Of a stretch of 64,000 nucleotides of DNA, positions 39,162 through 49,002 are shown piece after piece. Origin of the DNA: Luteimonas sp. (GTDB lineage: Bacteria; Pseudomonadota; Gammaproteobacteria; Xanthomonadales; Xanthomonadaceae). The translations under genes and the position numbers were made by a program. The number at the start of each line of letters is the position of its first letter. Position 1 is the stretch's first letter. Location: assembly GCA_024707405.1 (NCBI GenBank), contig JANPZU010000005.1, positions 62,001 to 126,000 of the forward strand. Direction: 5' to 3'. The notes under the pieces are model-generated. The model was not told where the DNA came from. It did no database searches and saw only the letters and a list, made by a program, of their open reading frames with translations.

Positions 39162-39938
39162 ATGGATCCGCATCGCTGGCGGCTGGACGGGCAACTTGCG
39201 CTGGTCACCGGCGGCAGTGCCGGGATCGGGCGGGCCATCGCCCGGGAATTGCTTGGGTTCGGCGCATCGGTGCTGATCGTGGCCCGCAATGGCGATGCGC
39301 TGGAGGCGACGCGCGACGAATTGGCCGAGGAATTCCCCAAGGGCGATATCCGCGCCTTCATCGGCAACGTCGCCGACGACGAACAGCGCCGCGAGGTGCT
39401 GGATTGGGTGGAAGACCAGGGTGAGGGCTTGAATATCCTGGTCAACAACGCCGGTGCCAACCTGACCCGCGCCGCCAACGATTACACCGAGGACGAGTGG
39501 CGCGAGATCTTCGAGGTCAACCTGTTCAGCGCCTTCGAGCTGTCGCGCTACGCGCATCCGCTGCTGACGCAGCATGCTTCTTCGTGCATCGTCAACGTGG
39601 GCAGCGTGTCCGGCATCACCCACGTGCGCAGTGGCGCACCCTACGGCATGACCAAGGCGGCGATGCACCAGATGACGCGCAACCTCGCGGTGGAATGGGC
39701 CGAGGATGGCGTGCGGGTCAATGCGGTCGCACCGTGGTACATCCGCACGCGGCGCACGTCCGACAAACTGTCAGATCCCGATTACCTCGATGACGTGCTG
39801 CTGCGCACGCCGATGGGACGTGTGGGCGAGCCGGAAGAAGTGGCTGCCGCGGTCGCCTTCCTGTGCCTGCCTGCGGCCGCGTACATCACCGGTGAATGCA
39901 TCGCCGTCGACGGCGGGTTCCTGCGTTACGGGTTCTGA
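39162..39938 (+). CDS. SDR-family oxidoreductase (tropinone-reductase-like)
   Basis: 258-aa short-chain dehydrogenase. Motifs are [19 protein letters not shown] (coenzyme site), LVNNAGAN (NNAG), VNVGSVSG (Ser) and YGMTKAA (YxxxK), with the C-terminal [19 protein letters not shown]. The ARNGD segment after the second strand suggests NADPH preference. It is most like the 'tropinone reductase' class of bacterial SDRs; the real substrate is unknown. It is convergent with the lipocalin gene, overlapping it by 13 bp. It may belong with the neighbouring lipid-modification cluster, where SDRs often occur, rather than with pectin use. Confidence 0.88.
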
Positions 39939-40480
39939 GTGGGCGGCGGCGGATCGCCCGATTGCGGCACCCGGCGCAGTTTGGACAGGTCGTAGCCCAG
40001 GTCGGCGATGCGAAGGGCCGCGGCGGCATATTCGTCATCGGGGATGGAGGGCGTGCGCGCCATCAGCCACACGTAGTCGCGCTTGCTGCGGCCGACGATG
40101 GTGCGCTGGTAGGCCGGGTCGAGATCGACGATGACGTACTCGGCCTGGATCGGCCACACGAACTGCATGCCCCATATCGCGCCGTTGGTGCCTTCGCGCA
40201 CGGTGCCGACGGGGTGCATCGTCTCCAGCGGCGCATCGAAGCTGCCGTCGCGGTAGTGGAAGGTGGTCTGGATGCGGCCGTCCTTGCGCAAGGCATAGGT
40301 CTCGATAGCATCGTAGGCGTTGCGCTCCGGTCGCGTGGGGATGTGGGCGATGACGTACCAGTCGCCCATGAAGCGTTCAATATCCACCTCCGTGACCGGC
40401 GGGATCCTGGGTTGGCGCGAGGAACATGCCGAGACCATCACGACCGCCAGTGCTGCCAGCATCCATCGGGTGGCGTTCAT
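39926..40480 (-). CDS. blc: Outer-membrane lipocalin (Blc-like lipoprotein)
   Basis: 184-aa lipoprotein with leader [13 protein letters not shown] (lipobox VSAC, Cys about 19). The bacterial lipocalin signature is seen in [20 protein letters not shown] (GxW motif), then [36 protein letters not shown] and [10 protein letters not shown]. Blc-type lipocalins bind membrane lipids or fatty acids at the outer membrane, which suits the fatty-acid-modifying genes upstream. Its ATG overlaps the stop of the methyltransferase gene by 4 nt, making it the last gene of the operon. Confidence 0.92.
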
Positions 40481-41571
40481 GGGGTGGCCTCCCCGTTGCC
40501 GCGCTCGAACAGGTAGTGCGCGACCAGCCACTCCTGGCCATCCCGGTAGCCGAACAGTTCCGCACAGGCCATCCAGAACATCCGCCACCTCTGGAACCAC
40601 AGTGGCGCGGCGGCCTCGCCGTAGGTGTCGCGCAGCACCTGCATGCACGCCTCGCGCTGGCGATCCTGGTTGCGCAGCCAGTGGTTGGCGGTGTTGCGAT
40701 AGTGGGTGCCGTCGAGCAGCCAGCGGCGTTCAAGCGACAGCCGATCCTGGAAGTGCAGTAACGTGTCCGCGGCCGGCATCAGCCCACCGGTGAAGAAGTG
40801 CCGCCCCATCCAGTTGTCTTCGCCTTCGGTCTGGTACGGATACATCAGTGTCCGGTGCGCAAAGATGTGCACGAACAGCTTGCCGCCGGGCCTGAGGCTG
40901 TCGGCGATGCGCGACATCAGCATGCCGTAGTTGCGCATGTGCTCGAACATCTCCACCGACACGCAGCGGTCGAACGCCTGCGATGGCAGGTCGACGTGGT
41001 TGACGTCCCCGGTGACGACGGTGATGTTGCCGATGCCGAGTTCGCGCGCACGGGCAAGGATGTATTCGCGTTGCCCGCGTGAGTTGGACACTGCAGTGAT
41101 CCGCGCATTCGGGTAGCGCTCGGCCATCCACAACGTCAGCGATCCCCAGCCGCAACCCAGTTCCAGGATCGATTGCCCGTCGGCCAGCTGTGCGCGTTCG
41201 GCATATAGCGCCAGCATCGCTTCTTCCGCTTCGTCCAGGGTTTCCGCGCCGGTGGGATAGAACGCGGCGCTGTACTTCATCCGCCGGCCGAGGCAAAGCC
41301 GGAAGAAGTCGGGCGGGAGTTCGTAATGCTGGCGATTGGCGGCGTCGACATGGAGCGCCACCGGGCTGTTGTGCAGTTCGTCGATCAGCGACGAAAAGCG
41401 TGCGGCCTGTGCGGTCTGTCCTCCCGCCTGTTCGTCGCGGAGTCGTTGCGCGCAGAGACGGCGGATGCCCAGGCGCACCAGCGCATCCGGCAGCAGGCCG
41501 CGTTCGGCCCATCCCGCCAGTCCGGCCGCGTGCTCATGGGTGGCGTGCAGGTCTTCGGTTCGCGTGTTCAC
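40477..41571 (-). CDS. Cyclopropane-fatty-acid-synthase-like SAM methyltransferase (short copy)
   Basis: 364-aa class-I SAM-dependent methyltransferase of the CFA-synthase superfamily. The CFA-type region begins HYELPPDFFRLCLGRRMKYS, then the SAM motif ILELGCGWGSLTLWMAE, TAVSNSRGQREYI and SVEMFEHMRNYG. It diverges from true CFA synthases (MFEHM in place of MIEAVG) and lacks the usual N-terminal domain, suggesting a different methylation on a fatty acyl chain. GTG start at 41571 overlaps the DUF1295 stop (GTGA). A second, more canonical CFA synthase lies two genes upstream. Confidence 0.9.
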   Translation of the reverse strand: MNTRTEDLHATHEHAAGLAGWAERGLLPDALVRLGIRRLCAQRLRDEQAGGQTAQAARFSSLIDELHNSPVALHVDAANRQHYELPPDFFRLCLGRRMKYSAAFYPTGAETLDEAEEAMLALYAERAQLADGQSILELGCGWGSLTLWMAERYPNARITAVSNSRGQREYILARARELGIGNITVVTGDVNHVDLPSQAFDRCVSVEMFEHMRNYGMLMSRIADSLRPGGKLFVHIFAHRTLMYPYQTEGEDNWMGRHFFTGGLMPAADTLLHFQDRLSLERRWLLDGTHYRNTANHWLRNQDRQREACMQVLRDTYGEAAAPLWFQRWRMFWMACAELFGYRDGQEWLVAHYLFERGNGEATP

Positions 41572-42377
41572 GTCGGACGCTCCTCGGTCGTCATCCCGTC
41601 GTCGGACGGGAACCATGGAAACAGCATCGGTGTCGTGCGCTGGTAACGGCGGTAATCGTCGCCGCGCGTGCGCAGGGCCTGTTGTTCGGTGAACGGAATG
41701 CCGCTGATCCAGCGCAGGAACACGAACATCACGACCGGGCCCGCCAACGACAGCCACCAAAGCGGCGAGCCGATTGCGAGCAGCACGTACGCGAACCAGT
41801 GCAACCACTCGAAGAAGTAGTTGGGATGGCGCGAATAGCGCCACAGGCCTTCCCGGAAAGTCTTGCCGCGGTTCTCCGCGCGGGCACGGAAACGGGCGAG
41901 TTGCCGGTCGGCGATGGCTTCGCCCGTAACGCTGGCGAGCCACAACAGCGTTGCGGCGATCCACCAGGCGATGGCGTCGCCGCGTAGGTTGGCGGCAACG
42001 GCCACGAACGGCAGTGCGAATAGTACGACGAGTCCGGACTGGAACAGGAAGAAGCCGAAAATCTTGCCTTGGTGTCCGTTCCAGTACGCACGCAAGTGTC
42101 GGTAGCGACCATCCTCCGGTTCGCTGCGCACGCGCCGCCACAGGTGCAGTGCCAGTCGCAATCCCCAGGCTGCCCCGAGGACGGCGAGCAGGACGCGCGG
42201 TGCGATGGCGCCATCGCCCAATACGGCTGCAATCACCGCTGCGCCGCCGACGCCGATGGCCCACAGCACATCGACGATGCCGATGTTGTCGTGGCGTTTC
42301 TGCCACCACCAGCCGAGCATCATCATCGCTGACGACAGCGACAGCACCACGGCCAGCGTCAGCGTCGTCGTGCTCAT
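41568..42377 (-). CDS. DUF1295 membrane protein (steroid 5-alpha-reductase-like)
   Basis: 269-aa integral membrane protein with about seven helices. The C-terminal half (SRHPNYFFEWLHWFAYVLLA, FRARAENRGKTFREGLWRYS) carries the conserved Arg/His/Asn/Tyr motifs of DUF1295 and the steroid 5-alpha-reductase/ICMT-like superfamily, which reduces or methylates membrane lipids using NADPH or SAM. It sits between the two CFA-like genes with 4-nt overlaps on both sides, implying a step in the same lipid conversion, perhaps reduction of an unsaturated methylated acyl chain (inference). Confidence 0.88.
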   Translation of the reverse strand: MSTTTLTLAVVLSLSSAMMMLGWWWQKRHDNIGIVDVLWAIGVGGAAVIAAVLGDGAIAPRVLLAVLGAAWGLRLALHLWRRVRSEPEDGRYRHLRAYWNGHQGKIFGFFLFQSGLVVLFALPFVAVAANLRGDAIAWWIAATLLWLASVTGEAIADRQLARFRARAENRGKTFREGLWRYSRHPNYFFEWLHWFAYVLLAIGSPLWWLSLAGPVVMFVFLRWISGIPFTEQQALRTRGDDYRRYQRTTPMLFPWFPSDDGMTTEERPT

Positions 42378-43633
42378 CGGACTCCCACTCCACCGGGTGC
42401 GGGACGATGACCTGGACGCGCCAGCAGCAGGTGCGAGACGCCGATCGAACGCTCACGGAAGCCGCCCTCGCAATAGGCGAGGTAGAACTCCCACAGGCGA
42501 ATGAAGCGCTCGTCGTATCCCTGTGCACGAACGGCCGCAAGATTGGCGAGGAAGCGTTGTCGCCATGCCTGCAGGGTGAGGGCGTACGACAGGCCGAAAT
42601 CGTGCTGGGCGACGAGTTGCAGGTCAGTGGCGCGGGTCTTGGCCTGCAATATCGCATCGATCGACGGGATGAAACTCCCCGGGAACACGAAGCGCTTGAT
42701 GTAATCCACGCTCCGCAATGCCTGCCGATAGCGATGGTCTTCGATGGTGATGGCTTGCAGCAGCGCCAACCCATCCGCTTCCAGCAAATCGCCGATCTTG
42801 CCGAGGTAGGCAGGCAGGTACTGTGCGCCAACGGCTTCGATCATCTCGATCGACACCACCTTATCGTAGCGGCCATGCAGATCCCGGTAGTCCTCGAGCA
42901 GCAAGGTGACGTGATCCTGCAGATTCGCCGATTCGACGCGCTGCTTCGCGAGTTCGAATTGTTCGCGCGAGATCGTGGTGGTGGTGACGTGGCAGCCATT
43001 GTGGCGTGCGGCATGGATTGCGAAGCCGCCCCATCCCGTGCCGATCTCCAGCACGCGGTCGCCCGGAACCAGTTGCAGCCACTGGCATATCCGTTCGAGC
43101 TTGCGGGTCGATGCCGTTTCGAGCGATTCGTCATCGCGCTCGTACAGCGCCGAGGAGTACATCATATCGGCGGACAGGAACAGCGCGAAGAACTCGTTTC
43201 CCAGGTCATAGTGTTCGGCGATGTTGCGACGGCTGCCATCACGCGTGTTGCGACGGGCCGCATGCCAGAGCCGCAATGCGAGTCCGCCGATCCGGGCCAG
43301 GCCGCCCTCCATGCCGTCCAGCAATCCACGATTGCGTACCAGAAGTTGCACGAGAGACACCAGGTCGCTGCAACGCCAGAGTCCTTCGATGTACGCCTCG
43401 CCGGCACCGACGCTGCCGTTGGCCGCGACCAGGCGATAGAAACGGCCGTCTTCGATATGGATGTCGATGCAAGGCGTCTCGTCTTCATTGCCGAGGATCA
43501 CCGTGCCGCTTGCGTCGTTGAGGCGGATGCGACCGCCACGCAGGCCCGAGAGCACATCGAGCAGGCGCCGCCGCAATGCGCGTTCGATCGCCGACAGCGG
43601 TGTCGTCGGCATGGCGTGGGCGATGCGGCTCAT
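42374..43633 (-). CDS. cfa: Cyclopropane-fatty-acyl-phospholipid synthase
   Basis: 419-aa protein with the full CFA synthase layout: N-terminal lipid-binding region (about 25–130), then [20 protein letters not shown], the SAM motif [29 protein letters not shown], the active-site region [16 protein letters not shown] and [15 protein letters not shown]. It methylates the double bond of unsaturated phospholipid chains. Start ATG 43633 overlaps the DUF1365 stop; its own stop overlaps the DUF1295 start. In this operon it may make a methylated intermediate rather than plain cyclopropane (inference). Confidence 0.93.
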
Positions 43634-44394
43634 GCGCGCTCCCTGGAGTGGTCGGGATGGTCGAACACGGGGATTCCCTTCAGCCACAGACGCAGCGCCT
43701 GCCAATGGATGCCGGCGACGACCTGCAGCGTCATCAACGGGTACCGGGCCAGCACCATCGCCAGTCCGCGCCCGTCGAGCGGGCGGCGCTCGAGCGCGAT
43801 GTCGGCATCGAACATCCGCATGTCGTCCCGCCAGACCTGCATGTGCACGCGCAAGTCCTCACCCGGAGCGGTGAAGCGCCAGTCGTAGCGGCAGTCCATC
43901 GGCAGGAACGGAGAGACATGGAAGCGCTTGTCGAACGCCCAGTGCCAGGCGCGGCCATGCACCACAGCGTCCGCTGTCGGCAACACGTAGCGATGGCGCT
44001 GCTTCCACGGCGTATTGGTGATCTCGGCGACGATGCTGTGCAAGGTTCCGTCGCTCGCGTGGCAGTAATAGAAACTGACCGGATTGAAGACGTGGCCGCC
44101 GTAGCGCAGATGGGCCAGCAGGCAGATCGGGCCCTCTGGGCGCGTGCCTGTGGCTTGCTGCACGCAGTCGCGCACCGCATCGGGCAGGGGTTGGGTCGCA
44201 TGTCCGAGATAGTCGCTGCGCCTGAACTCGGCGATGTTGCGTCGGTGTGCCGACCACAGCCAGCGTCGCTGGAACACCGTGTCCACTTCGTCCAGATCCA
44301 GCAGCAACTGGGCGACACCGTAGTCGAAGGCGTGCGCGCGTGGCAGGTGGCGCTGGTGGCGCACGTGGCCCACATAGATCGCGCTTGCGCTCAT
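43630..44394 (-). CDS. DUF1365 family protein
   Basis: 254-aa cytoplasmic protein of DUF1365, recognisable from [20 protein letters not shown] at the start, [40 protein letters not shown] and the C-terminal LVMTL-like [20 protein letters not shown]. The family has no firmly known activity to me, but its genes sit almost always beside the FAD amine-oxidase-like gene and a CFA synthase, as here, and it belongs to RpoE–ChrR regulons in alphaproteobacteria. It overlaps both neighbours by 4 nt. Confidence 0.92.
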
Positions 44395-45677
44395 GCGGCC
44401 TCCACCGTGGCGGGAGTGGCTTTGTCACGATGTGGTGTCGCCTCCATTGCGCCCACCATCTCGTATGCGCTGCGGATGCCGTCTTCGTGGAAGCCCCACC
44501 CCCAGTAAGCACCGGCGAACCAGGTCTTGCGGCGGCCTTGTATCTCGCCGCGCCGTGCCTGCGCGCGCACCATCGCGTGGTCATGCACGGGGTGCGAGTA
44601 GCGCATCGTGCGCAGCACGCGATCAGGTCGGATGGCATCGTTGCGGTTGAGGGTCACGATCAGTGGCCGTGCGCTGTCGATGCCCTGCAGCAGGTTCATC
44701 CAGTAGCTCACCGTGCACGCAGCGCCGGGTGTCGCGGGCACGTGTGCATTCCATGCCGCCCAGGCCTTGCGGTTGCGCGGCAACAGGCGTTCGTCTGTGT
44801 GCAGCACCGCATCGTTGGACTGGTAGCGGATCGCACCCAGCACTTCACGCTCGACAGCATCGGCATCCGTCAGCAAGGCCAGTGCCTGGTCGCTGTGGCA
44901 AGCCAGCACGACCTGGTCGAAACGTTCCTGTCCGGCGGTGCTGTCGATCAAGACGCCATCGCCACGCCGGTGCACGGCATGCACGGCATGCCCGATGCGC
45001 TCGCGAACCTGCCAGCGCGTGCGCATCGCATCGACATAGCGCGCCGAGCCACCGGAGACCACGTGCCACGGCGCACGGCCGGTGGCCTGCAGCATCTGGT
45101 GGTTGGACATGAACTGCACGAGGTAACGGGCCGGGAAATCCAGTGCGTTGGACGCCGGCGACGACCACAGTGCGGCGGCCATCGGCACCAGATGATCGTG
45201 CACGAAAAGTCGTCGGTAGCCGCCTTGAGCGAGGTAATCACCGAGGGTCGGGCCATCGGCGTCGCCGCTCAGCAATGCCGGTGCCTCGCGATAGAAACGC
45301 CGGATGTCGAGCAGCATCCGCCAGAACGCGGGCGAGACGAGGTTGCGTCGCTGGCAGAACAGTGTGTGGAGCGATCTCGCGTTGTATTCCAGCCCACTGC
45401 CTGCGTCGTGCACCGAGAAGCTCATCGTGGTCGGCTGGCTGGCGACGCCCAGCTCGTCGAACAATGTCGTCAGCAACGGGTAATGCAACGGATTGAACAC
45501 GATGAATCCGCTATCGACCGCAAGCCTCCGGCCTTCCAGTTCAATGTCGTGCGTGTGGGTGTGCCCTCCGAGGTAGTCGTTGCGTTCGAACAACGTCACT
45601 TCGTGGCGTTTCGACAGCCACCATGCGCTCGCGAGTCCCGCGATGCCCGACCCGACCACGGCGATGCGCTGCTTCAT
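44391..45677 (-). CDS. FAD-dependent amine-oxidase-like oxidoreductase
   Basis: 428-aa flavoprotein. The N-terminal dinucleotide-binding motif is [18 protein letters not shown] with the flavin-contact segment [15 protein letters not shown]. The C-terminal flavin motif ([20 protein letters not shown]) is near the end. It belongs to the COG2907-type NAD/FAD-binding proteins that always accompany DUF1365 and CFA synthase genes, probably desaturating or oxidising a membrane acyl chain. Start ATG 45677 overlaps the desaturase stop; its stop overlaps the DUF1365 start. Confidence 0.92.
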
Positions 45678-46675
45678 GGCGCGGCATCCGTGCGCGCGTG
45701 CTCGAACACCCACGCCGGTACCGGCTTGAGTCCGGACACCAGGCCCAGCGCGGCCATCAGTCGCAATCCGTACCAGGTGAGGTCGACTTCCCACCAGTAG
45801 AAGCCCTGGCGGGCGGATCCGGGAAAGAAATGATGGTTGTTGTGCCAGCCTTCGCCGAAGGTGATGACGGCAAGCCATGCATTGTTGCGGCTGTCGTCGC
45901 GGGTGGCGAAGCGGCGACGGCCGAAGCGGTGCGCCAGCGAATTGATCGTGACCGTGGCATGGAACAGCACCACGGTCGACACGAAGAATCCCCACACGAG
46001 CAGTTGCGGGCCATTGGTGCCGAACATCGGGGCCCATGCCGCCAGCGCTTCGCCGAGGGCGTACAGTGCGGCCGCGAGCAGCAATGGCACCAGCGTGTCG
46101 AAGCGGTCGAGCCAGCGCAGTTCGGGGTACTTCGCAAGATCCGGGATGCGGCTCCAATCGGTGCGGAATCCGTCGCGGGTCAGGAACCAGCCCGCGTGAC
46201 TTCGCCAAAAACCTTGACGCGGTGAATGCGGATCGTCGGGAGTGTCGGCGTGGCGATGGTGGCGGCGATGATGCGCGGCCCACCACAATGGCCCGCGTTG
46301 CACGCTGGCTGCACCGATCAATGCGAACACGAACTGGATCGGGCGCGAGGCGTGGAACGTGCGATGCGAGAAATAGCGGTGGTAGAACGCGGTGATCGCG
46401 AACATGCGGATGGCGTAGAGCGCGATGCATGCCGTGACCGCAAACCACGAGACACCCACCCACAACACAAGCAGGCATGCGGCGTGCATGCCCGCGAAGG
46501 GCAAGGCGCGAAGCCAGTCGATCCGTTCGCCGTCATGTTCGTTGCCGCTCGACGTCGTGGCCGACGTATCGAACCAGCGGCGCAATGCAGACAGCCATGC
46601 CTGCCTTGGATGATGCGCGATGCGGGAGTGTGGATCCACGAAGGTGTCCGGCGCAGCGGGAGTTCGTGGTGGCAT
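45674..46675 (-). CDS. Acyl-CoA/acyl-lipid delta-9-type fatty acid desaturase
   Basis: 333-aa integral membrane di-iron desaturase. The three histidine boxes are HRYFSH (99–104), HHRRHH (135–140) and HNNHH (about 285, in EGWHNNHHFFPGSAR), the pattern of stearoyl-CoA-type delta-9 desaturases. Four membrane helices flank them. It would introduce the cis double bond that CFA-type enzymes then methylate, so it is a logical first enzyme of the downstream five-gene overlap chain. An 88-bp gap with no clear promoter separates it from the upstream unknown gene. Start at 46675 (MPPRTPAAPD) is the only good Met before the conserved region. Confidence 0.92.
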   Translation of the reverse strand: MPPRTPAAPDTFVDPHSRIAHHPRQAWLSALRRWFDTSATTSSGNEHDGERIDWLRALPFAGMHAACLLVLWVGVSWFAVTACIALYAIRMFAITAFYHRYFSHRTFHASRPIQFVFALIGAASVQRGPLWWAAHHRRHHRHADTPDDPHSPRQGFWRSHAGWFLTRDGFRTDWSRIPDLAKYPELRWLDRFDTLVPLLLAAALYALGEALAAWAPMFGTNGPQLLVWGFFVSTVVLFHATVTINSLAHRFGRRRFATRDDSRNNAWLAVITFGEGWHNNHHFFPGSARQGFYWWEVDLTWYGLRLMAALGLVSGLKPVPAWVFEHARTDAAP

Positions 46676-46763
46676 ACGTGCATCCGGGCCAAGCGGATGC
46701 AGTGGCTCGCATCATCGGGCAGGCAGGTCACATTGGTGCACGCGGCGTGAAGTCCACGCCGGC

Positions 46764-47534
46764 TCAGTCCTTGCAGGCGGTGAGTTTCTCGGCCGAGGCT
46801 GCCGCCATCTCGGCGGCAGCGACCTGACGGCTTGCAGGCGCGAACGCGATCCGCACCTGCTGGTTGCGACCGCGGTCGTCGCGCACATCGCCGGTGCCGG
46901 AAAATTCGAGCAGTCGCCTGTCGGCGCGGGCATAGACCAGATGCACCGGCGGCACCGCGAAGCCGTACCACTGGTCGAGATCCATCCGCAGGCGTTCGGC
47001 GGCGATGCCGTTCCAGGTCGTCGCTCCGATGCGACGGATACGCACCGGATAGAAACGCTTCCGACCCGGCACGAGGAAACGCAATCGCACTTCCTCCCCG
47101 GAGGACAGCGCATGCCAATGTGCGCGAACGGCCGCATCGAAGCCTGCGTCGATCACACCGTCTGCGGGGACTTCAAGCGGGTAGCGCAGTTCCGGTCGTC
47201 CCGCTTGTTGCAGGTAGCCGTGCCGTCGGCCGGCGAGCAGGGATACGCCCTGGCGATAGCCATCCCGTCCATCCTCGAATGCGAAATCCGGCGCGCTGGC
47301 CGATCCGGAGGCACTGACCAGCTTGCGTGCGAACGCCTGTCCACCAGGGCAGCGATAGAGCACCAGTCGCTTGGCCGGGGATGCGGACTCGTCGACCCAG
47401 TGGCTTTCGGTGTACAGCAATCGTCCGTCGGCGCTGGCGTAGGCGCGCGCATCGTCGCGCTGCACCGAGGCCTGCGCCTGCAGCGCGAGGGACAGCAGGC
47501 AGGCTGCCGTGGCAGACAGCAATCGCGATGGCAT
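46764..47534 (-). CDS. Exported protein of unknown function in the sigma/ChrR cluster
   Basis: 256-aa protein with a clear signal peptide (LLSATAACLLSLALQAQA) and GAGGAGG before ATG 47534. The mature part is beta-rich, with short Arg/Tyr-rich strands (LRFLVPGRKRFYPVRIRRIG; MDLDQWYGFAVPPVHLVYAR; RLLEFSGTGDVRDDRGRNQQ) and one pair of conserved-looking Cys (YRCPGGQ and the C-terminal TACKD). I do not recognise the family. Its place between chrR and the lipid-modifying genes suggests a periplasmic or outer-membrane role in the same response. Confidence 0.82.
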   Translation of the reverse strand: MPSRLLSATAACLLSLALQAQASVQRDDARAYASADGRLLYTESHWVDESASPAKRLVLYRCPGGQAFARKLVSASGSASAPDFAFEDGRDGYRQGVSLLAGRRHGYLQQAGRPELRYPLEVPADGVIDAGFDAAVRAHWHALSSGEEVRLRFLVPGRKRFYPVRIRRIGATTWNGIAAERLRMDLDQWYGFAVPPVHLVYARADRRLLEFSGTGDVRDDRGRNQQVRIAFAPASRQVAAAEMAAASAEKLTACKD

Positions 47535-47572
47535 TTCGCCTCCTCGTCGGCTTGGCAAACAGTGCGTTGTCA

Positions 47573-47592
47573 CCGCATCCGCATGGATGCGG
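47573..47592. promoter_or_regulatory. Intercistronic hairpin downstream of chrR
   Basis: CCGCATCC (47573–47580) and GGATGCGG (47585–47592) form a perfect 8-bp stem with a GCAT loop in the 67-bp gap between chrR and the exported-protein gene. No T-run follows on the minus strand, so partial termination or mRNA processing separating regulator from effector expression is more likely than full termination. Confidence 0.55.
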
Positions 47593-47601
47593 CACGTCGT
47601 A

Positions 47602-48273
47602 CTAGATCTTGAACAAGGGTTGCAGCTTGCGTGCGATCCAGCTGTTGAAGCGCAGCGGCGCATCGAGTGCGGATACGCAGATGCAGGGCACGCCCGGCGC
47701 GGTCACCGGCTGGTGCTCGATGTCGCTGTCGAGGTCGGCGACATCGCCGGGCGTGAAATGACCGAGCGCATCGTGGTACGCGCCTTGCAGGATCTGGGTG
47801 ACCTCGGTCGATCCATGGCTGTGCAAAGGCATGCTCTTGCCCGGTGCGATCCTGAGCAGCAGCAAGGTGCTGGTGCCTTCGGCGCGGATGCAATGCACCC
47901 CGGGCGACATCCAGCGCCACTTCAGCGCCTGGTAGGACGTCCCGAAATACGGGTGCAGCGGTGTCGGCAGCTGATCCGGGTCGCGTGATGGTTCGACGTC
48001 TCTGCCTGCGTGCGAGTGTCCACGCACGGCACTGTTGCCTGCAGTCTCGTCGAGCTGTTCGAGCATTCGTGAGCGCAGTGCGGCCGGATGCGTGGCGGCA
48101 CCGTGTTGCTGTTCGACGAGCAGGCCACCAATGGACTCGGCGGCGGCGGCCTGCCGACGGCAATGCGGGCAGGCGTCGAGGTGGGTGGCCACGACCACGG
48201 ACAGTTCCAGAGGCAATGCACCGGCGGCGTAGCTGACCAGCGTCGACGGGTCGAGGTGGTGCCGGGGCGTCAT
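47602..48273 (-). CDS. chrR: ChrR-type zinc anti-sigma factor with cupin domain
   Basis: 223-aa anti-sigma factor. The N-terminal zinc anti-sigma domain has H6, H31, C35 and C38 (HHLDPSTLVSYAAG; THLDACPHC), the same positions as the zinc ligands of Rhodobacter sphaeroides ChrR. The C-terminal cupin has H151, H153, E157 and H187 (MPLHSHGSTEVTQ; DIEHQP), with exactly the HxHxxxE…30…H spacing of the ChrR cupin zinc site. In that system ChrR releases the sigma factor on singlet-oxygen stress. Its start overlaps the sigma stop by 4 nt, so both are made in equal amounts. Confidence 0.93.
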   Translation of the reverse strand: MTPRHHLDPSTLVSYAAGALPLELSVVVATHLDACPHCRRQAAAAESIGGLLVEQQHGAATHPAALRSRMLEQLDETAGNSAVRGHSHAGRDVEPSRDPDQLPTPLHPYFGTSYQALKWRWMSPGVHCIRAEGTSTLLLLRIAPGKSMPLHSHGSTEVTQILQGAYHDALGHFTPGDVADLDSDIEHQPVTAPGVPCICVSALDAPLRFNSWIARKLQPLFKI

Positions 48274-48896
48274 GGCTGTCCCCCGATGTCGCGCTGCAGC
48301 CGCAGGAAGGCGCGGCGCAGGTGCGACTTCACCGTGCCAAGCGGCATGGCCAGTTCCTGCGCGATTTCCTGGTGGCTCTTGGCTTCGAAGTACGACATGC
48401 GGATCAGCCGTGCCTGGATCGTCGGTAGTGCATCGATGCGGCGCTTGAGGCGGACGTGTTCGGCATGGGTTTCGGCGGTGGTGGTGGTCGGTGGGTCGTC
48501 CGCTTCGGCAAGTGTCACCGACTCCTGCACATGCGCCCAGCCGGGCTCCTTGCGCACGCGGTCGATGTAGAGGTTGCGCGCGATCCTGAACAGCCATGTC
48601 GACAGGCTGCTGCGGGCCGGATCGTAGAGGTCCGCGCGCAGCCAGAGCTTGAGCAGGGCTTCCTGCGCCAGTTCCTCGGCATTGCCGGCGTTCGTGCCCA
48701 GCCCGCGCAGGTACAGGCAGAGGCGCGGCATGAAGTGGTCGTAGATCCGCATGAAACTGTCGCGGCAGCGATGCTGCGAGACTGCAGCCATCTCATCCGA
48801 CCAGTCCTGGGGCTCGCGGGCGGGGTTCGGGGTGCTGGACACGCGTCTGCCTGCCTCGAAAGGCGATGTCGTTCCGTTTGCCGGATCAGCGGTCAT
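48270..48896 (-). CDS. rpoE: ECF sigma factor (RpoE/ECF11-like, partner of ChrR)
   Basis: 208-aa ECF sigma factor with region 2 (FMRIYDHFMPRLCLYLRGLG; AEELAQEALLKLWLRADLYD; SSLSTWLFRIARNLYIDRVR) and region 4 (LIRMSYFEAKSHQEIAQELA; PLGTVKSHLRRAFLRLQRD). The DPARSSLSTWLFRIARN segment is typical of the RpoE–ChrR group. Start ATG 48896 (MTADPANGT) is used, though the folded part begins near residue 36 and later Mets are possible. First gene of the minus-strand cluster and probably autoregulated with its anti-sigma. A TTGACA-like element lies at 48923–48928, but no consensus ECF promoter was recognised. Confidence 0.92.
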   Translation of the reverse strand: MTADPANGTTSPFEAGRRVSSTPNPAREPQDWSDEMAAVSQHRCRDSFMRIYDHFMPRLCLYLRGLGTNAGNAEELAQEALLKLWLRADLYDPARSSLSTWLFRIARNLYIDRVRKEPGWAHVQESVTLAEADDPPTTTTAETHAEHVRLKRRIDALPTIQARLIRMSYFEAKSHQEIAQELAMPLGTVKSHLRRAFLRLQRDIGGQP

Positions 48897-49002
48897 CGTA
48901 GGGCAGTCGTGGGTGCGAGTGGTGTCAAGTCGGGTGTGGTACGTAGAATCCGGGCCATCCGGATGCACCGGATGCGGCACCCACGGCAACGGAGGAGAAG
49001 GC

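What the first reader, a model, noticed from the sequence alone, without database searches (positions are those of the whole stretch)
39926..48896. ECF sigma–ChrR pair heading a tightly overlapped lipid-modification cluster
A sigma/ChrR pair is followed on one strand by an unknown exported protein, desaturase, FAD oxidase-like, DUF1365, CFA synthase, DUF1295, second CFA-like methyltransferase and lipocalin. Seven junctions are exact 4-nt stop/start overlaps (48270, 45674, 44391, 43630, 42374, 41568, 40477). Family knowledge: RpoE–ChrR regulons in Rhodobacter respond to singlet oxygen and include DUF1365, FAD-oxidase and CFA-like genes, and SAM methylation of unsaturated chains leads to furan fatty acids there. 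Inference: this operon builds a modified (cyclopropane, methylated or furan) membrane acyl chain as an oxidative-stress shield, delivered or sensed by the lipocalin. No photolyase is present, unlike many relatives.
Basis: partly seen in the sequence, partly recalled or inferred. Interest (0 to 1): 0.82.

Follow-up and report, generated by a model that had tools for sequence, protein, structure and literature searches.

The report
Self-contained furan fatty acid operon
This bacterium appears to carry, in one gene cluster with its own stress switch, relatives of all four enzymes known to make doubly methylated furan fats, membrane lipids thought to soak up a damaging form of oxygen; the enzymes are of a known kind, but the all-in-one cluster and its extra parts look new.

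Summary
In detail: ten same-strand genes with seven exact 4-nt overlaps. The 'CFA synthase' is probably not a cyclopropane synthase: it lies in the clade of the furan-fatty-acid methylase UfaM and has the UfaM-type active site (SEEAQY, not CGEHHY). The FAD enzyme and DUF1365 match UfaD and UfaO. The 'second CFA-like' gene groups with Rhodopseudomonas palustris FufM, which adds the second methyl, so a dimethyl-furan fatty acid is predicted. A promoter motif, GCATCC-N16/17-CGTA, precedes both the sigma gene and the desaturase gene; ChrR loci outside the family have TGATCC-N16-CGTA. In 119 sampled family genomes the FufM-type gene is in 62 of 62 with DUF1365 and 1 of 57 without. The gene block is constant, but its switch varies: sigma-ChrR, sigma-RskA (same motif) or none nearby. 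Desaturase, DUF1295, lipocalin and an exported half-barrel protein lie outside the published core; their roles are inference. Five Luteimonas strains, probable relatives, list no C18:1 but much iso-C17:1, so an iso-branched furan acid is the untested prediction. New variant of a known kind; no wet data.

The parts
48940..48966 (-). Predicted sigma-dependent promoter GCATCC-N17-CGTA before the sigma gene
   Evidence: motif before sig in ChrR-type relatives, there mostly with N16; the N17 form is expected 0.10 times per window by shuffles and found twice (the other, 47575-47601 on the + strand, points away from the operon genes)
48270..48896 (-). ECF sigma factor (alternative start GTG 48842)
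   Evidence: best solved relative R. sphaeroides SigE 2q1z_A, 115 bits, against 62 for SigK
47602..48273 (-). ChrR-type anti-sigma factor, zinc domain plus cupin-like domain
   Evidence: TIGR02451 above cut-off; alignment to 2z2s_B keeps Hx3Cx2C and the HxH...E...H residues of the cupin part
46764..47534 (-). Exported protein, no Pfam or NCBIfam match; predicted half-barrel
46675..46700 (-). Predicted promoter GCATCC-N16-CGTA before the desaturase
   Evidence: same place in 15 of 16 ChrR-type, 15 of 19 RskA-type and 6 of 25 other relatives; shuffles mean at most 0.02, max 1
45674..46675 (-). Acyl-CoA/acyl-lipid desaturase (SCD-like); possible start GTG 46639
   Evidence: PF00487; 4ymk 109.5 bits; three His boxes by eye
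44391..45677 (-). UfaD-type FAD protein
   Evidence: 42% identity to the FAD gene before DUF1365 in R. palustris JSC-3b
43630..44394 (-). DUF1365, UfaO-type
   Evidence: 283 bits; 32% to the R. palustris JSC-3b protein; model pLDDT 92
42374..43633 (-). UfaM-type methylase (annotated as CFA synthase)
   Evidence: UfaM clade 100/98; active-site string SEEAQY
41568..42377 (-). DUF1295 membrane protein, remote kin of steroid 5-alpha-reductase and ICMT
   Evidence: 217 bits; profile hits 7c83 at E 2.2e-4 and 4a2n at E 1.2e-3
40477..41571 (-). FufM-type SAM methyltransferase (plant CNMT-like)
   Evidence: 6gkv 245 bits; clade with R. palustris FufM 100/100; 46% identity
39926..40480 (-). Blc-type lipocalin; lipobox VSAC by eye, so probably a lipoprotein

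Best explanation
A self-contained dimethyl-furan-fatty-acid operon under an ECF11-like sigma-ChrR switch. Steps with a characterised counterpart elsewhere: UfaM-type 42374 adds a methyl at a cis double bond of a phospholipid acyl chain and shifts the bond to trans; UfaD-type 44391 makes the methylated diene; UfaO-type 43630 puts in oxygen from O2 and closes the furan; FufM-type 40477 adds the second methyl. Inferred steps: singlet oxygen or peroxide releases sigma from ChrR; sigma reads two GCATCC-N16/17-CGTA promoters (its own and the desaturase's), giving positive feedback; the desaturase supplies the monounsaturated chain where vaccenate is scarce; DUF1295 acts on the furan lipid or its oxidation product; the exported half-barrel and the lipocalin bind or shuttle lipid in the envelope. 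The product quenches singlet oxygen.
For: Clade and active-site tests. R. palustris JSC-3b: FAD-DUF1365-UfaM in a row, and a FufM-type gene preceded by DUF1295 with a 4-nt overlap. Functions from PMC7380195 (first of seven parts of the text, passages and section 18 seen; 8, 9, 13, 44, 93, 127). A gammaproteobacterial UfaM, from Halomonas, made 11-methyloctadec-12-enoate in E. coli (PMC12089945, passages; 131). Linkage: MT2 in 62 of 62 sampled family genomes with DUF1365 and 1 of 57 without, Fisher 1.4e-33. Promoter motif before the desaturase in 15 of 16 ChrR loci, and TGATCC-N16-CGTA in 20 of 24 ChrR loci outside the family, often on both divergent sides. ChrR in 18 of 119 genomes (16 above cut-off, 2 split), all 18 with DUF1365, Fisher 2.3e-6; 20 further genomes with matches of 45 bits or less were not counted. 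The genome's only other CMAS match is partial, 38 bits.
Against: No lipid or expression data. DUF1365 is only 32% identical to the R. palustris protein. FufM identity rests on a JSC-3b orthologue, not on CGA009 itself. Luteimonas profiles (PMC12281983, passages and section 13; 116, 121) list no furan acid and no C18:1, while cis-vaccenate is the chain UfaM is reported to act on. In PMC12089945 cyclic acids were seen in the ufaM strain too. Genome-wide the motif is not specific: 18 sites against 11 for the reversed control; of the 15 outside the operon 8 are inside predicted genes. No exact motif before the exported gene in the window. Three of three sampled same-genus genomes lack DUF1365 and MT2. 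Two CMAS rows without a DUF1365 neighbour on short loci also fall in the UfaM clade.
Confidence: 0.75

Rival explanations
1. A cyclopropane-fatty-acid operon: the 42374 gene is a true CFA synthase and the rest are other lipid genes.
For: Annotation: CMAS 263 bits; NCBIfam CFA synthase 277 bits, but below its cut-off of 400. 36% identity to E. coli CFA, near the 40% to R. palustris UfaM (79). Cyclic acids were also seen when Halomonas ufaM was expressed in E. coli (131), though E. coli has its own cfa.
Against: Four of six positions tested differ from E. coli CFA (C139 to S, G236 to E, H240 to A, H266 to Q) as in R. palustris UfaM; E239 and Y317 are the same. One of six solo CMAS rows that read like E. 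coli CFA also has A at 240, so 139, 236 and 266 are the telling ones. 58 of 61 family relatives read SEEAQY and 3 AEEAQY (82). The tree leaves E. coli CFA outside the clade at 100/98 (79).
Confidence: 0.06
2. A monomethyl-furan operon in which MT2 methylates something else, such as a headgroup nitrogen or an amine, as its plant relatives methylate coclaurine.
For: Best solved relatives of MT2 are plant N-methyltransferases: CNMT 245 bits against 102 for the best CFA synthase (15).
Against: R. palustris FufM is in the same clade. FufM is reported 37.87% identical to the plant protein AT4G33110 (PMC10940516, passages; 17), so CNMT likeness is expected of a FufM. Of 63 sampled family genomes with MT2, 62 also have DUF1365.
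Confidence: 0.14
3. The operon is a furan pathway but not a singlet-oxygen response here; the switch answers another signal, such as peroxide, metal or light.
For: Relatives run the same block beside a sigma-RskA pair, and others beside no sigma of these kinds; Aeromonas and Salinivibrio have MerR and photolyase beside it, Klebsiella MerR without photolyase on the stretch. ChrR also answers organic peroxide (PMC6852236, passages; 14).
Against: Window ChrR keeps the zinc domain and the cupin-like domain, the latter reported as needed for the singlet-oxygen response (20; PMC6852236, passages; 14).
Confidence: 0.25

Closest known systems
R. sphaeroides sigmaE-ChrR regulon with ufaM (RSP2144), ufaD (RSP1091), ufaO (RSP1090)
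   Same: Sigma-ChrR pair; homologues of UfaM, UfaD and UfaO
   Different: Published core (PMC5507510, passages; 113) also has an SDR, a lipoprotein and phrB, in three loci, and no FufM, desaturase or DUF1295; here one cluster. ChrR loci read outside the family have TGATCC where this family has GCATCC (99); R. sphaeroides itself was not read
R. palustris dimethyl-FuFA genes RPA2571-2569 and RPA0924 (fufM)
   Same: Same four enzymes; in strain JSC-3b the FufM-type gene follows DUF1295 with a 4-nt overlap
   Different: In JSC-3b two loci 1.5 Mb apart; no sigma, ChrR or desaturase match on the 13-kb stretches read (67)
Rhizobial ChrR clusters (Mesorhizobium terrae, Shinella sp. HZN7)
   Same: Sigma-ChrR with DUF1295-FufM; in M. 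terrae also divergent FAD-DUF1365-UfaM
   Different: Divergent operons; no desaturase on the stretches (45, 55)
Acinetobacter sp. WY4 plasmid cluster
   Same: Desaturase-FAD-DUF1365-UfaM-DUF1295-FufM in the same order, with a lipocalin
   Different: Lipocalin comes first; a two-component system lies next to it and no sigma-ChrR on the stretch (46)
MerR clusters (Aeromonas, Salinivibrio, Klebsiella)
   Same: FAD-DUF1365-UfaM
   Different: No DUF1295 or FufM on the stretches; SDR, DUF2878, DUF3833, and photolyase in two of three (48, 57, 58)
Halomonas sp. YLGW01 ufaM
   Same: A gammaproteobacterial UfaM, shown in E. coli to give the methylated intermediate
   Different: Single gene studied; no FufM or sigma-ChrR in the passages seen (131)

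Membership tests
Furan fatty acid pathway (UfaM/UfaD/UfaO) | UfaM-clade methylase with the non-CFA active site | tested here: met
Furan fatty acid pathway (UfaM/UfaD/UfaO) | UfaD-type FAD protein and DUF1365 | tested here: met
Furan fatty acid pathway (UfaM/UfaD/UfaO) | Furan fatty acids in phospholipids, O2-dependent | not testable with these tools
   Needs GC-MS
FufM (dimethyl-FuFA methylase) | Groups with R. palustris FufM, apart from UfaM and CFA | tested here: met
   19-row clade, 100/100; through the JSC-3b orthologue
FufM (dimethyl-FuFA methylase) | Methylates 9M5-FuFA to 9D5-FuFA | not testable with these tools
   Needs an enzyme assay
ECF11 sigmaE-ChrR | ChrR zinc domain and cupin-like domain with their ligands | tested here: met
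   which residues are ligands is recalled
ECF11 sigmaE-ChrR | Promoter like TGATCC-N16-CGTA | tested here: inconclusive
   here GCATCC with the same -10 box and spacing 16 or 17
ECF11 sigmaE-ChrR | Induction by singlet oxygen | not testable with these tools
   Needs expression data
Published core sigmaE-ChrR regulon | SDR, RSP_1088-type lipoprotein and phrB in the same cluster | tested here: not met
   none of the ten genes. A photolyase is elsewhere in the genome (103), with no motif site within 50 kb (72). SDR and lipoprotein elsewhere in the genome were not sought
Cyclopropane fatty acid synthase | Active-site C139 and H266 (E. coli numbering; role recalled) | tested here: not met
   S and Q

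The most novel reading that the evidence does not exclude
The operon makes an iso-branched dimethyl-furan phospholipid, from iso-C17:1 supplied by its own desaturase, and recycles or detoxifies it: DUF1295, remote kin of steroid 5-alpha-reductase, would reduce the ene-dione that a furan becomes on meeting singlet oxygen (this chemistry is recalled), while the exported half-barrel and the lipocalin carry the lipid in the envelope. It would then be a renewable singlet-oxygen sink run by interchangeable sigma/anti-sigma heads that read one promoter.
Probability: 0.12. Interest if true: 0.78.

Novelty: new variant of a known kind. Interest (0 to 1): 0.52.

Why it matters
Dimethyl furan fatty acid synthesis was worked out in R. 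palustris with the genes in separate places. A cluster that carries relatives of all four enzymes plus a desaturase could be moved as one piece into a laboratory host, and it points to new partners for the pathway (DUF1295, desaturase, lipocalin). The active-site string offers a simple rule to tell UfaM from proteins annotated as cyclopropane synthase. Two kinds of anti-sigma factor beside the same promoter motif make a natural test of how sensors are exchanged while a regulon stays put. The absence of C18:1 in the Luteimonas strains makes the substrate an open, directly testable question.

Tried and rejected
Rejected: cyclopropane synthase. Rejected: that the desaturase is the only source of unsaturated chains, since a FabA (281 bits) and a second desaturase (56 bits) are in the genome. 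Rejected: that the genome lacks photolyase. Not upheld: further regulon members in the genome. The motif gave 18 sites against 11 for the control; of the 15 outside the operon 8 are inside predicted genes, one lies 16 nt before a predicted ORF (L201, not studied), two lie 536 and 980 nt before one, and four have none on the fetched stretch.

Limits and dropped rows. The 119 family genomes are a drawn sample, named by number only. Genes in fetched loci were called by my own codon-score script trained on Lysobacteraceae hits, so counts for other loci are lower bounds (no gene or only one was labelled on L181, L183, L187 and L189). The tree took the UfaM and MT2 proteins of 12 of the 61 family loci; of loci L217-L231, four (L218, L225, L228, L231) gave no UfaM/CFA gene call and were left out. 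One search kept the best 80 of 588 relatives. The one genome with MT2 but no DUF1365 (G063) was not followed up. Of 47 DUF2878-cluster and 19 RskA-cluster proteins, one of each was scanned with Pfam (41).
Full report
WHAT IS THERE. A 4-nt overlap is possible at the same places in many relatives, most of all fad-DUF1365 (52 of 60) and DUF1365-cfa (55 of 61) (104). Read from the sequence, the ATG taken for the desaturase (46675) shares its A with the -10 box of a predicted promoter, so GTG 46639 is a likelier start. For sigma, most relatives show a GAGG about 10 nt before the position of GTG 48842 (69, by eye), so either start is possible. The lipocalin has a lipobox; the exported protein has a signal-like start and no lipobox (by eye).

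THE 'CFA SYNTHASE' IS UFAM-LIKE. A tree of 52 CMAS proteins puts the window protein in a 26-row clade (100/98) with the R. palustris JSC-3b UfaM and the CFA-like proteins that share a cluster with DUF1365, apart from E. coli CFA and six CMAS proteins without DUF1365 nearby (79). At E. coli CFA positions 139/236/239/240/266/317 the E. coli enzyme and five of those six read CGEHHY and the sixth CGEAHY. JSC-3b UfaM, the window and all ten further proteins outside the family that share a cluster with DUF1365 read SEEAQY; of 61 Lysobacteraceae operon proteins 58 read SEEAQY and 3 AEEAQY (82). Two proteins without DUF1365 on their short loci (L222, L227) also read SEEAQY and sit in the UfaM clade, so DUF1365 need not be adjacent. 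That some of these positions bind bicarbonate in CFA synthase is recalled. A Halomonas UfaM expressed in E. coli gave 11-methyloctadec-12-enoate; cyclic acids were reported in that strain as well (PMC12089945, passages; 131), so UfaM activity in gammaproteobacteria is already in print.

THE SECOND METHYLTRANSFERASE IS FUFM-LIKE. Its best solved relatives are plant coclaurine-type N-methyltransferases (245 bits), well above CFA synthases (102 and less; 15). This fits FufM, which PMC10940516 reports as 37.87% identical to AT4G33110 (passages; 17). A scan for relatives found Rhodopseudomonas palustris JSC-3b. Its genome holds two strong CMAS matches: one beside DUF1365 (UfaM) and the MT2 homologue; four others score 42.5 bits or less. 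The two are 27.8% identical over 230 residues. PMC7380195 gives 26% between FufM (RPA0924) and R. sphaeroides UfaM and 38% for the other candidate, RPA3082, so the MT2 homologue fits FufM; JSC-3b shows no third strong match that could be RPA3082. The window protein is 46% identical to it and in one clade with it at 100/100 (79). PMC7380195 reports that FufM makes dimethyl from monomethyl furan acid in vivo and in vitro.

GENETIC LINKAGE. Of 119 sampled family genomes 62 have DUF1365, 63 have MT2 at E up to 1e-60 and 62 have both (Fisher 1.4e-33; 126). Around the 61 DUF1365 genes other than the window's, tblastn finds the FAD protein, DUF1365 and UfaM in 61, the desaturase in 60, MT2 in 60 and DUF1295 in 58; the loci without desaturase (L059) and MT2 (L062) are cut by contig ends. 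A protein of the DUF2878 cluster is on 47 of the 61 loci, typically between UfaM and DUF1295; in the window those two genes overlap and it is absent. In the best 80 MT2 loci of a scan of named genomes, mostly alphaproteobacteria, DUF1295 is on 54 and directly upstream on the same strand in 49 (26 with a 4-nt overlap), DUF1365 on 48, ChrR on 24, and the desaturase on 3 (L182, L184, L188, none of them titled as alphaproteobacteria).

THE SWITCH. Upstream of sigma, the exported gene and the desaturase of ChrR-type relatives lies GCATCC-N16-CGTA: 44 sites (N15 to N17 allowed) on 15 of 16 loci. In the 320 nt around the called desaturase start it occurs in 15 of 16 ChrR-type, 15 of 19 RskA-type and 6 of 25 other loci; dinucleotide shuffles gave a mean of at most 0.02 and never more than 1. 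Of 24 ChrR loci outside the family, 20 have TGATCC-N16-CGTA, commonly before both sigma and the FAD gene. So sigma probably drives its own genes and the enzyme block from separate promoters. ChrR above the family cut-off occurs in 16 of 119 genomes and as split matches in two more; all 18 have DUF1365, and 17 have ChrR beside the operon. Twenty other genomes have weaker matches (45 bits or less) that I did not count. In 19 loci a different ECF sigma (30-37% identical to the window's) lies with a protein of the RskA cluster, and all 19 have the motif, 30 sites in all, in five loci within about 300 nt before that sigma. There the base after GCATCC is mostly G (23 of 30) where ChrR loci have mostly A (30 of 42); the window's two sites have G. 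One genome (G019) has RskA at the operon and ChrR elsewhere. Thus the block and promoter stay while the neighbouring sensor changes. That both sigmas read the motif is inference.

COMPARED WITH WHAT IS KNOWN. It works like, and by the sequence tests belongs to, the furan fatty acid pathway of PMC7380195 beside a sigma-ChrR pair. It differs from the published core regulon (SDR, lipoprotein, UfaO, UfaD, phrB, UfaM; PMC5507510, passages; 113) by lacking the SDR, that lipoprotein and the photolyase in the cluster, and by adding FufM, DUF1295, desaturase, lipocalin and the exported protein. No paper on furan fatty acids in this family was listed in searches (130 listed 40 of 245 holders of the term), in a library that lacks most subscription papers.

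VERDICT. Interest 0.52: the chemistry is known, while the complete cluster, the exchanged switches and the substrate question are new and testable.

Noticed in passing
L037, L039, L048, L092 and L088, L090, upstream of the desaturase: Among 12 of 25 loci without a local sigma-ChrR or RskA pair that I looked at, four share roughly TTCACTGC-NN-CATCAC-N-GCG and two share TACGCAAATCTAC: perhaps further kinds of control for the same block.
   Followed up: no
window 47575-47601 (+): A third exact copy of the promoter motif on the opposite strand, in the gap between ChrR and the exported gene, pointing away from the operon genes; possibly chance.
   Followed up: no
61 Lysobacteraceae loci L032-L092: A lipocalin gene goes with the ChrR head (16 of 16) rather than with RskA (8 of 19) or neither (4 of 26).
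   Followed up: partly
L115, L149, L158: Sigma-RskA pairs also sit beside furan-type genes in named alphaproteobacteria (3 of 80 loci), so the exchange of switches is not confined to one family.
   Followed up: no
L107 (Klebsiella pneumoniae plasmid stretch): FAD-DUF1365-UfaM with DUF2878 and DUF3833 beside a MerR regulator and a lipocalin, with an insertion sequence on the same stretch.
   Followed up: no
window 43630-44394: DUF1365 is predicted with confidence (pLDDT 92) as a beta-rich fold with a long C-terminal helix; no close solved fold found, best matches middling.
   Followed up: partly
window 48894-48900 and relatives: Eight of 17 sigma genes looked at by eye (window included) have TACGATG or TACCATG at the upstream ATG, which could be a second -10 element overlapping the start.
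   Followed up: no
genome G063: The one sampled family genome of 57 without DUF1365 that still has an MT2 gene (58% identity).
   Followed up: no
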